From: Rhodocytophaga aerolata
GTDB lineage: Bacteria; Bacteroidota; Bacteroidia; Cytophagales; 172606-1
Direction: 5' to 3'
Assembly (NCBI RefSeq): GCF_030503435.1
Contig: NZ_JAUKPO010000002.1
Span: 62,001-126,000, forward strand
Length of the DNA: 64,000 nucleotides
Shown here one piece after another: positions 45,986 through 47,166 of the stretch. Each line of letters starts with the position of its first letter. Positions within the stretch are counted from its first letter, which is position 1. Under the pieces are notes generated by a model, which saw only the letters and a program-made list of their open reading frames with translations, was not told the origin of the DNA and did no database searches. The translations under genes were made by a program, and so were the position numbers.

Positions 45986-46029
45986 AACTACTGATATGTA
46001 TAGGGAACTATGGCTTTTATTATAGTACA

Positions 46030-46171
46030 AAAGGGCAACAAACGAAAAGTCTCTATATAGCGTGTCTACCAATTCCACCATTCCGGAGCTCTCCGAAAGC
46101 AGGACTCGAACCTGCACGTTCTTGCGAACACTAGCACCCAAAGCGAAGAAATACTTTTCTACGGCACCTTT
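46030..46171 (-). ncRNA. Permuted tRNA(Leu)-like Y-RNA candidate (unit 7)
   Basis: Read on the minus strand: outer stem AAAGG, conserved TGCCGTAG, inner stem AAAAGT, TTTCTTCGC, then the 3' half of a class II tRNA (variable arm GTGTTCGCAAGAACGT, T arm GCAGGTTCGAGTCCTGC), acceptor strand TTTCGGA, loop GAGC, acceptor strand TCCGGAA, D region GGTGGAATTGGTAGACACGC, inner stem ACTTTT, conserved CGTTTGTTG and CCCTTT. The long variable arm and the D sequence are those of tRNA-Leu. The halves are in swapped order and the anticodon arm is gone, so it cannot be read as a normal tRNA. Coordinates are from base-pairing, not from mapped ends. Confidence 0.85.
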
Positions 46172-46178
46172 ATAAAAT

Positions 46179-46316
46179 AGGGGTAACAAACAATAAGTCG
46201 CTTATGTTGCTCTACCACTGAGCTATTCCGGCATATGAGGTAATAGAGCCGGAAGCGGGATTCGAACCCGCGACCCACCGATTAGATTCGAAGTAAGACT
46301 TATTTACGACACCCTG
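46179..46316 (-). ncRNA. Permuted tRNA(Thr)-like Y-RNA candidate (unit 6)
   Basis: On the minus strand: CAGGGT, conserved GTCGTA, inner stem AATAAGTC, TTACTTCG, T arm GCGGGTTCGAATCCCGC, acceptor strand TTCCGGC, 15-nt loop, acceptor strand GCCGGAA (7 perfect pairs), D arm GCTCAGTGGTAGAGC, inner stem GACTTATT (8 perfect pairs), conserved GTTTGTT, ACCCCT. The acceptor, D and T arms are those of a bacterial tRNA-Thr, in permuted order. No anticodon stem can be formed. It starts only 4 bases after the tRNA-Lys discriminator base. Confidence 0.87.
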
Positions 46317-46319
46317 TAG

Positions 46320-46394
46320 TGTGCCCGGAGGGATTCGAACCCTCGACCCCCTGCTTAAAAGGCAGGTGCTACTAACCAGCTGAGCTACGAGCAC
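46320..46394 (-). tRNA. tRNA-Lys (anticodon UUU), D arm with one extra base
   Basis: Conventional order on the minus strand: acceptor GTGCTCG with CGGGCAC, anticodon stem CCTGC/GCAGG around loop CTTTTAA (anticodon TTT), T arm GAGGGTTCGAATCCCTC, discriminator A, no CCA. The D arm reads GCTCAGCTGGTTAGTAGC, one base longer than the usual GCTC...GAGC, which weakens the fourth D-stem pair. It lies inside the array of permuted units, so it is either a working tRNA or a relative of their ancestors. Confidence 0.85.
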
Positions 46395-46532
46395 AAAATG
46401 TTTATTGGTTTGCCCACAGCCATCAGCATTAGTTGCCGGACTAGTTACTTACGGGCAATATATTGGTTTCTTATGGTCCTTTTTCATAGACATCTTATTA
46501 AGTTTTTGAACTTTGCATACTTCATAAGCAAC
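46395..46532 (-). other. Spacer between array unit 5 and tRNA-Lys
   Basis: 138 bp without a T arm or array motif. On the minus strand TTGCCC and GGGCAA could pair across about 38 nt just ahead of tRNA-Lys. It may hold the tRNA-Lys promoter. Confidence 0.4.
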
Positions 46533-46666
46533 GAAGGAGTAACAGGCAACCTGAGTAGCGGGGCAACGCATGCCGGGAGTTGAACCCGGATACCTTTGCT
46601 GCACAGTGGCAACTATGATATTCCTCCCCTGAGTGCGCGAAGTAACCCATGTTTACGACATCCTTC
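46533..46666 (-). ncRNA. Variant Y-RNA candidate with T arm, no clear D arm (unit 5)
   Basis: On the minus strand: GAAGGA, conserved TGTCGTA, inner stem AACATGGG, TTACTTCGC, a hairpin CATAG-TTGCCA-CTGTG, a canonical T arm CCGGGTTCAACTCCCGG, then CTCAGGTT (pairs with the inner stem with one A-G mismatch and one G-U), GCCTGTTAC and TCCTTC. The frame and T arm match the other units, but no clear acceptor pair and D arm follow the T arm. The small hairpin could be an anticodon-like or variable-arm remnant. Confidence 0.7.
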
Positions 46667-46678
46667 TTTACTTACCAT

Positions 46679-46812
46679 GAAAGGGCAACGGCCGAAGGGC
46701 GTACAAGTTGGCATTCTACCATTGAACTATCTTTTATTTGCATAAAAGGTGGGAATCGAACCCACAACCTCCAGCGTGACAGGCGAAGTAACGCCCTTCT
46801 ACGGCACCTTTC
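46679..46812 (-). ncRNA. Permuted tRNA(Asp)-like Y-RNA candidate (unit 4)
   Basis: On the minus strand: GAAAGG, conserved TGCCGTA, inner stem GAAGGGCGT, TACTTCG, then CTGTCACGCTGGAGG, which is the anticodon loop (GTC) and 3' anticodon strand of tRNA-Asp, T arm GTGGGTTCGATTCCCAC, acceptor strand CTTTTAT, GNRA-type loop GCAA, acceptor strand ATAAAAG (7 perfect pairs), D arm AGTTCAATGGTAGAAT, CCAAC (4 of 5 pairs with GCTGG), inner stem ACGCCCTTC (9 perfect pairs), GGCCGTTG, CCCTTTC. It is the clearest evidence that the flanking frame was inserted at the anticodon loop. Confidence 0.88.
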
Positions 46813-46818
46813 TATGTC

Positions 46819-46948
46819 TGGGGTAACAAGCGGGCAGCCTTCTTTTCATTGCTCTAACCACTGAGCTACTTCTAACTTTTGCCAGAAGGCAGGGCTCGAA
46901 CCTGCGTCCGATGAGGTCAAACGAAGTATTGCTACCCTACGACACCCA
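46819..46948 (-). ncRNA. Permuted tRNA-like Y-RNA candidate (unit 3)
   Basis: On the minus strand: TGGGT, conserved GTCGTA, inner stem GGGTAGC, AATACTTCG, T arm GCAGGTTCGAGCCCTGC, acceptor strand CTTCTGGC, loop AAAA, acceptor strand GTTAGAAG (8 pairs including two G-U), D arm GCTCAGTGGTTAGAGC, ATGA (pairs with TCAT as an anticodon-stem remnant), inner stem GCTGCCC, conserved GCTTGTT, ACCCCA. The parent tRNA is not identified. Only 6 bp separate it from unit 4. Confidence 0.86.
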
Positions 46949-46963
46949 TTTTATTTTAGCAAA

Positions 46964-47034
46964 CAGAGCAACAAACAAACAGTGTGTTTTCAAATTACAC
47001 GTCTGCGATGAAACGCTACTCTACGTATGTGCTT
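46964..47034 (-). ncRNA. Degenerate array unit (unit 2)
   Basis: On the minus strand CGTAGAGTAGCGTTTCATCG resembles the 5' frame of unit 1 (CGTAGAAAAGTATTCCTTCG) and GTTTGTTTGTTGCTC resembles the 3' frame (GTTTGTTGCCC). Between them GTGTAATTTGAAAACAC could be a decayed T arm. There is no acceptor or D arm and no good inner stem. Probably a decaying copy. Confidence 0.5.
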
Positions 47035-47051
47035 ATAACTTTTGTTTTTTA

Positions 47052-47166
47052 AAAACAGAGAAGGGCTACTAACGAAAAGTCCGTACAGGAATTGAACCTG
47101 ACTGTCTTTGCAGACAGTTGCAACCAAAAGCGAAGGAATACTTTTCTACGGCACCTTCTCTGTTTT
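47052..47166 (-). ncRNA. Y-RNA candidate with T arm next to the Ro gene stop (unit 1)
   Basis: It begins at the base after the Ro stop codon. AAAACAGAGAAGG and CCTTCTCTGTTTT form a 13-bp outer stem; inside lie TGCCGTAG, inner stem AAAAGT, ATTCCTTCGC, a long hairpin ACTGTC-TGCAAA-GACAGT like a class II variable arm, T arm CAGGTTCAATTCCTG, inner stem ACTTTT, CGTTAGTAG. Acceptor and D arm are absent. Followed by TTTTT, the hairpin could also act as terminator or processing signal for the Ro message. Confidence 0.75.

What the first reader, a model, noticed from the sequence alone, without database searches (positions are those of the whole stretch)
46030..47162. Conserved internal-loop motif of unknown role in the array frame
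The 5' strand reads GG-TGCCGTA or GGGT-GTCGTA and the 3' strand GTTTGTT, GCTTGTT or GCCGTTG before CCC, while the stems on both sides covary freely (for example AATAAGTC/GACTTATT, GGGTAGC/GCTGCCC, GAAGGGCGT/ACGCCCTTC). Stems varying while loops stay fixed is the mark of a protein-binding or catalytic element, most simply the Ro site.
Basis: partly seen in the sequence, partly recalled or inferred. Interest (0 to 1): 0.7.

Follow-up and report, generated by a model that had tools for sequence, protein, structure and literature searches.

The report
Ro-docking site of Y-RNA array
A run of small tRNA-like RNAs next to a bacterial Ro60 gene all carry the same small bulged joint in their handle, which is almost certainly where the Ro protein grips them; the joint is conserved across Bacteroidota and, in variant form, in Deinococcus and several phages.

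Summary
Observation confirmed and sharpened. On the minus strand, just after a TROVE/Ro60 (Rsr) gene (47167-48687), six units (47160-46028) share a frame: outer stem, one bulged U, a 2-bp G-C/Y-R mini-helix, an asymmetric loop (CGUA opposite a 7-nt GYYNGUU-like strand), a 7-bp helix, then a TTACTTCG box. Stems covary strongly; the loop does not vary. 77 of 80 other Bacteroidota Ro loci hold such units. In 296 genomes the unit model exceeds 79 bits in 15 of 16 Ro+ genomes (the 16th has weaker units beside its Ro gene) and stays at or below 51.4 bits in all 280 Ro- genomes. The same model finds Ro-adjacent units in Deinococcus, Rhizobium, Rhodococcus and phages. The resemblance to the vertebrate Ro site is in architecture (bulged pyrimidine plus 3 extra nt opposite), not sequence. 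New to my knowledge: the covarying pair inside the 'loop', and that in most tRNA-headed units the frame sits inside the anticodon stem, keeping the anticodon loop. Binding itself is not shown.

The parts
47167..48687 (-). Ro60/Rsr protein gene (TROVE + vWA)
   Evidence: Pfam TROVE E 1.7e-31, vWA_Ro60 E 2.6e-8; profile hits to Xenopus Ro 1yvp, human RO60 9nen and D. radiodurans Rsr 2nvo; H175 aligns with Xenopus H187 and is invariant in 18 Ro proteins
47058..47160 (-). Y-RNA unit u1 (short head; no permuted tRNA recognised)
   Evidence: R1 48.3 bits; strict descriptor
47147..47153 (-). site 5' strand u1: U(bulge)-GC-CGUA
47065..47073 (-). site 3' strand u1: GUUAGUA-GC
46816..46951 (-). Y-RNA unit u3, tRNA-like head (T-arm, capped acceptor stem, D-arm)
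   Evidence: R1 106.8 bits; Rfam YrlA 31.6 bits
46938..46944 (-). site 5' strand u3: U-GU-CGUA
46823..46831 (-). site 3' strand u3: GCUUGUU-AC
46678..46813 (-). Y-RNA unit u4, tRNA-like head with Asp-type anticodon loop CUGUCAC
   Evidence: R1 103.9 bits; Rfam YrlA 25.3 bits; anticodon-arm analysis
46800..46806 (-). site 5' strand u4: U-GC-CGUA
46685..46693 (-). site 3' strand u4: GGCCGUU-GC
46532..46667 (-). Y-RNA unit u5, second head type (GGGGAGGAAU..T-arm..GCCCC)
   Evidence: R1 37.3 bits; aligned with 17 relatives
46654..46660 (-). site 5' strand u5: U-GU-CGUA
46539..46547 (-). site 3' strand u5: GCCUGUU-AC
46176..46318 (-). Y-RNA unit u6, tRNA-like head
   Evidence: R1 116.2 bits; Rfam YrlA 36.7 bits
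46305..46311 (-). site 5' strand u6: U-GU-CGUA
46183..46191 (-). site 3' strand u6: GUUUGUU-AC
46028..46173 (-). Y-RNA unit u7, tRNA-like head with long variable arm (Leu-like)
   Evidence: R1 69.2 bits; sequence
46160..46166 (-). site 5' strand u7: U-GC-CGUA
46035..46043 (-). site 3' strand u7: GUUUGUU-GC
46289..46297 (-). conserved ..UUACUUCG box after helix 2 (shown for u6; present in all units)
   Evidence: near-invariant in the 218 units; in tRNA-headed units its UCG(N) can pair with the 3' strand of the anticodon stem

Best explanation
The motif is the Ro60/Rsr docking site in the lower stem of a family of bacterial Y RNAs, encoded as an array directly downstream of the Ro gene. Each RNA folds with its two ends paired. 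The outer stem is interrupted by a single bulged U, a 2-bp mini-helix and an asymmetric internal loop (CGUA against 7 nt), which should bend and open the major groove so that the outer face of the Ro ring (around His175, equivalent to Xenopus His187) can grip it. Above the site a second 7-bp helix carries a variable head, most often a circularly permuted tRNA mimic. Ro thus picks up several different heads through one shared handle; the heads then gate or tether Ro to other RNA enzymes, PNPase in the known Deinococcus case. Shown here: structure, covariation, conservation, adjacency, co-occurrence with Ro, and homologous units beside Ro in other phyla. Inferred: that Ro contacts this loop, the groove-opening mechanism, and the role of the heads.
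For: Gene next door is TROVE/Ro60. Loop columns are near-invariant in 150 units: U 149, C 147, G 149, U 148, A 140, while 31 of 32 pairs show two-sided changes, 95.3% of cells paired, 0/500 shuffles. Partners found without using the loop: 218 of 284 units against 22 of 284 in cross-locus decoys. 77 of 80 Ro loci hold units, all listed hits on Ro's strand. Co-occurrence: R1 above 79 bits in 15/16 Ro+ genomes and at most 51.4 bits in 280 Ro- genomes (Fisher p 2.6e-24); the 16th Ro+ genome, G262, has units of 53.5 and 35.4 bits beside its Ro gene. The 5' motif with correct spacing is in 16/16 Ro+ vs 29/280 Ro-; with wrong spacing 2/16 vs 16/280. Same model finds Ro-adjacent units in Deinococcus, Rhizobium, Rhodococcus and phages. 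Published: vertebrate Ro site = 7-bp helix, single bulged C, 3-nt bulge opposite (PMC4726728); Rsr binds the lower stem of bacterial Y RNAs (PMC4726728); a Bacteroides Ro60 RNP contains Y RNAs (PMC11277228, citing Greiling 2018).
Against: No binding data. The bulged base is U, not the vertebrate C, and the vertebrate 3-bp CGA/UUG segment is not reproduced base for base. The Rfam YrlA scores (25-37 bits) are below its cut-off of 69. Related sequences are not independent, so shuffle controls overstate significance.
Confidence: 0.88

Rival explanations
1. The loop is bound by a different protein of the Ro RNP (for example PNPase or another nuclease), and Ro binds elsewhere on the Y RNA.
For: The TTACTTCG box and the loop are both near-invariant, so more than one protein could read the frame; co-occurrence with Ro would look the same for any obligate partner.
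Against: Position and architecture match the published Ro site in the lower stem (PMC4726728, PMC4030889). PNPase is a broadly distributed bacterial enzyme (general knowledge), whereas the motif tracks Ro.
Confidence: 0.06
2. The motif is a processing signal that cuts the long array transcript into single RNAs, for instance for an RNase III-like enzyme.
For: Units lie head to tail, u1 begins 7 nt after the Ro stop codon, so co-transcription and processing are likely.
Against: The loop is inside each unit, not between units; it is retained where a single unit stands alone beside Ro (Deinococcus); and it is lost together with Ro.
Confidence: 0.03
3. The conserved loop only holds the RNA in the right shape (a junction or bend) and no protein reads it.
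For: A fixed bend could orient the tRNA-like head.
Against: It is equally conserved in units with permuted-tRNA heads, the second head type and short headless units, and its presence depends on Ro.
Confidence: 0.02
4. The units are folded single-strand DNA recombination sites, like integron attC sites, whose stems covary for the same reason.
For: Arrayed imperfect hairpins with covarying stems and a fixed unpaired base.
Against: The GTT of the 3' strand has no AAC partner as attC requires (recalled, not looked up); most units contain a folded tRNA mimic with D- and T-loop consensus; presence tracks Ro. Integrase was not searched for.
Confidence: 0.01

Closest known systems
YrlA / bacterial Y RNAs (Rfam RF02553; Salmonella rsr-yrlBA; Chen et al. 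2014, not readable here)
   Same: Ends pair into a stem with an internal loop below a 7-bp helix; head has T-arm, capped acceptor stem and D-arm in permuted order; encoded beside Rsr. 3' strand CUUGUCGCC of the Rfam consensus resembles CUUGUURCC here.
   Different: Rfam score below cut-off (25-37 vs 69 bits). Here a bulged U and CGUA loop replace the YrlA 5' strand GGCGAAUGC; most tRNA-headed units examined keep an anticodon loop absent from the Rfam consensus; arrays of several heads.
Vertebrate Y RNA lower-stem Ro60 site
   Same: Helix of about 7 bp, single bulged pyrimidine on the 5' strand, three extra nucleotides on the opposite strand before the next helix (PMC4726728).
   Different: Bulged U instead of C; mini-helix G-C/Y-R; CGUA/GYYNGUU loop; head is a tRNA mimic.
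Deinococcus Y RNA (unit beside rsr in D. gobiensis plasmid, L113)
   Same: Same frame found by model R1 at 89.8 bits directly upstream of rsr: GGG-U-GG-UGAAG / CGCCUGUU-CC-CCC.
   Different: Mini-helix pair is G-C where Bacteroidota have C-G or U-A; loop UGAA for CGUA; single copy, upstream of rsr.

Membership tests
Bacterial Y RNA | Encoded beside a Ro60/Rsr (TROVE) gene | tested here: met
   Window; 77/80 Ro loci; all 16 Ro+ genomes of 296, though 27 kb away in one
Bacterial Y RNA | 5' and 3' ends pair into a stem with a conserved interruption | tested here: met
   two-sided changes in 31 of 32 pairs, 0/500 shuffles
Bacterial Y RNA | At least one RNA with a tRNA-like (permuted T-acceptor-D) domain | tested here: met
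   Helices 3-5; T-stem 100%, D-stem 99%, acceptor 93% paired
Bacterial Y RNA | Bound by Rsr in the cell | not testable with these tools
   Needs pull-down or CLIP; a Bacteroides Ro60 RNP with Y RNAs is reported (PMC11277228 citing Greiling 2018)
Rfam YrlA RF02553 | Score at or above gathering cut-off of 69 bits | tested here: not met
   36.7, 31.6, 25.3 bits; so a relative, not a member, of that Rfam model
Vertebrate-type Ro60 site | Single bulged C on the 5' strand | tested here: not met
   Single bulged base present but it is U in 149/150
[quoted passage not shown]
   Loop is 4 nt against 7 nt (difference 3) in most units, but the in-between bases are not standard pairs
Ro60 protein | Conserved Y-RNA-contact histidine (Xenopus H187) | tested here: met
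   H175 aligned, invariant in 18 proteins; essential role per PMC4030889

The most novel reading that the evidence does not exclude
The array is a set of Ro-tethered tRNA mimics of several isotypes. The Ro-binding frame is inserted into the 5' strand of the anticodon stem between tRNA positions 28 and 29, so that the anticodon loop is kept while the acceptor end is sealed. Such RNAs could act as decoys or bait for enzymes that read or cut anticodon loops, or hand damaged tRNAs to Ro.
Probability: 0.2. Interest if true: 0.75.

Novelty: new variant of a known kind. Interest (0 to 1): 0.48.

Why it matters
Ro60 is a human autoantigen, and commensal Bacteroidota with Ro RNPs have been proposed to trigger lupus autoimmunity (PMC11277228). 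A phylum-wide consensus for the Ro site, with a covarying pair inside it, gives point mutations that should break and restore binding, and a model that finds Y RNAs in unannotated genomes and phages. The variable heads on one fixed handle make the question 'what do Y RNAs bring to Ro?' testable one head at a time.

Tried and rejected
Isotype capture from the window's own tRNA genes: with acceptor stems included, units are no closer to any one own tRNA than different isotypes are to each other, apart from u6 at a borderline 0.86 to Gly, so recent capture is not supported. Anticodon against body isotype, acceptor left out: weak agreement only (mean rank 6.3 of 19 against 7.8 shuffled, lowest of 500 shuffles 6.4). 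First anticodon-hairpin test used a poor control and was not informative; replaced by the fixed-register test. First motif scan used a wrong regular expression. First genome pattern had the wrong spacing; kept as a decoy control. Additional C-G/G-U pairing inside the CGUA loop like the vertebrate CGA/UUG: the facing 3' base is A, G or T about equally, so not supported. attC-like DNA site: considered, rejected. Chen 2014, Sim and Wolin 2018, Wang 2018 and Greiling 2018 were not available to read, so prior description of this exact consensus could not be checked.

Full report
What is there. Each unit has the same frame: an outer stem, one bulged U, two pairs (G-C and Y-R), the four bases CGUA facing seven bases of the form GYYNGUU, a second helix of 7 bp, and a box UUACUUCG. 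A strict descriptor of this frame finds five of them, none on the other strand, 0.25 expected in shuffled windows; the sixth has a weak outer stem but scores 106.8 bits with a covariance model. A real tRNA-Lys(UUU) gene lies between two units and is not framed.

The loop is conserved and the stems covary. In the flanks of 80 other Bacteroidota Ro genes I took each 5' motif and searched for its partner by the two stems only, ignoring the loop. 218 of 284 found a good partner against 22 of 284 when flanks were swapped between loci; the gap between the two 3' strands was 9 nt in 163 of 218 and read GYYNGUU-RC. A covariance model R1 built from 30 full units gave 333 matches in the 80 loci plus the window, all listed ones on the strand of Ro; 77 of 80 loci are hit, and two of the three without a hit have contigs that end within 44-204 nt of the gene. 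In the best 150, the bulged base is U in 149, then C 147, G 149, U 148, A 140, and on the other strand one U is kept in 149. 31 of 32 pairs show changes on both sides, with 95.3% of cells paired, 0/500 shuffles reaching this and slid controls at 43-49%. Those 150 were aligned by the model, which leans towards its structure, but the test does not use it.

A correction to the observation. TGCCGTA and TGTCGTA are not alternative loops. The Y pairs with R in the 3' strand: UA 68, CG 63, UG 16, AU 1, no break in 148; 27 arrays hold both UA and CG. In Deinococcus and phage units the pair is G-C by inspection of the aligned ends (the pair counts printed there are off by one column). So a 2-bp mini-helix sits inside what looked like the loop, with a single bulged U below it.

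It goes with Ro. Of 296 whole genomes from the class, 16 have TROVE. R1 reaches 79.5-127.6 bits in 15 of these and no more than 51.4 bits in the 280 others, where the best match covers only the tRNA-like part of the model; Fisher p 2.6e-24. The score threshold was chosen after seeing the data, but the gap is wide. The remaining Ro+ genome (G262) has units of 53.5 and 35.4 bits beside its Ro gene when the locus is searched alone. In 14 of the 15 the units are within about 3 kb of Ro; in G074 they are 27 kb away on the same strand. The 5' motif with the right spacing is in 16/16 Ro+ and 29/280 Ro- genomes, the latter as scattered single or double hits; a decoy spacing gives 2/16 and 16/280. The Ro+ genomes fall in about a dozen families, so this is not one clade.

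It is older than Bacteroidota. R1 finds full-length units beside Ro genes in a Deinococcus gobiensis plasmid, Rhizobium and Rhodococcus plasmids, a Xanthomonas phage (3), the Caulobacter phage CcrColossus (7 below E 1e-6) and a crAss-like phage. The Deinococcus unit, directly upstream of rsr, reads GGG-U-GG-UGAAG / CGCCUGUU-CC-CCC.

How it most likely works. Reviews state that the vertebrate Ro60 site is a 7-bp helix, a single bulged C and a 3-nt bulge on the opposite strand, that bulge mutations abolish binding, that the bulges open the major groove, and that Rsr binds the lower stem of bacterial Y RNAs (PMC4726728, PMC4030889). The frame here has about 7 bp, a single bulged pyrimidine, and 4 nt against 7 nt. 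The Y-RNA-contact histidine of Xenopus Ro (H187) aligns with H175 of the window's Ro and is invariant in 18 homologues. I therefore read the motif as the Ro-docking site; docking itself is inferred. It is a variant: the bulge is U, not C, and extra pairing like the vertebrate CGA/UUG is not supported.

The heads. Most units carry a permuted tRNA mimic: T-arm, sealed acceptor stem, D-arm. Among 97 units with a resolvable register, 71 have tRNA pairs 27-43 and 28-42 formed by the D-side strand. In these 71 the UUCG box supplies positions 29-31: pairs 31-39, 30-40 and 29-41 are at 69, 75 and 63% against shuffled maxima of 56, 68 and 55%. The 7-nt loop has U33 in 51 and a purine at 37 in 66. So the frame seems inserted between tRNA positions 28 and 29, and anticodon loops of several isotypes are kept (Asn, Lys, Arg, Ile, Met; Asp in window unit u4). 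Agreement between anticodon and body isotype is weak but above shuffles; similarity to the window's own tRNAs is not above background. A second head type and short headless units use the same frame.

Novelty. Bacterial Y RNAs that mimic tRNA beside Ro60 are known. The key paper and reviews could not be opened here, so I cannot say that the consensus is unpublished. The Rfam YrlA model scores below its cut-off. I file the motif as a new variant of a known kind.

Noticed in passing
46532-46667 (-), L037:7972-8106, L055:8876-9010 and about two dozen other loci: Second head type, not a permuted tRNA: GGGGAGGAAUAGC..GCUAUCC-T-arm..GCCCC without a D-arm. The UUCG box may pair downstream as a pseudoknot (CGUC/GACG, CGCU/AGCG, CGCA/UGCG; 3 of 1000 shuffles reach the observed mean).
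   Followed up: partly
L017, L020, L024, L030 and others: 41 short units (roughly 70-90 nt) with the full Ro frame but little or no head.
   Followed up: no
L115:1628-1695 (Caulobacter phage CcrColossus): The annotated tRNA-Gln D866_gt024 overlaps a Y-RNA unit (R1 99 bits, 1623-1789) in a row of such units upstream of the phage Ro gene, so it is probably not a tRNA gene.
   Followed up: partly
46319-46394 (-): A complete tRNA-Lys(UUU) gene sits inside the array without a Y-RNA frame.
   Followed up: no
about 46966-46977 (-): A lone 3' strand GUUUGUUGCUC with no clear 5' partner: a possible decayed unit between u1 and u3.
   Followed up: no
G074:C4 (L135, about 213-215 kb): An array of about ten units lies 27 kb from that genome's only TROVE gene (about 187 kb), on the same strand.
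   Followed up: partly
L045 (Muribaculaceae Ro locus): A Ro gene with full flanks but no unit found by R1: either a lost or a very divergent Y RNA.
   Followed up: no
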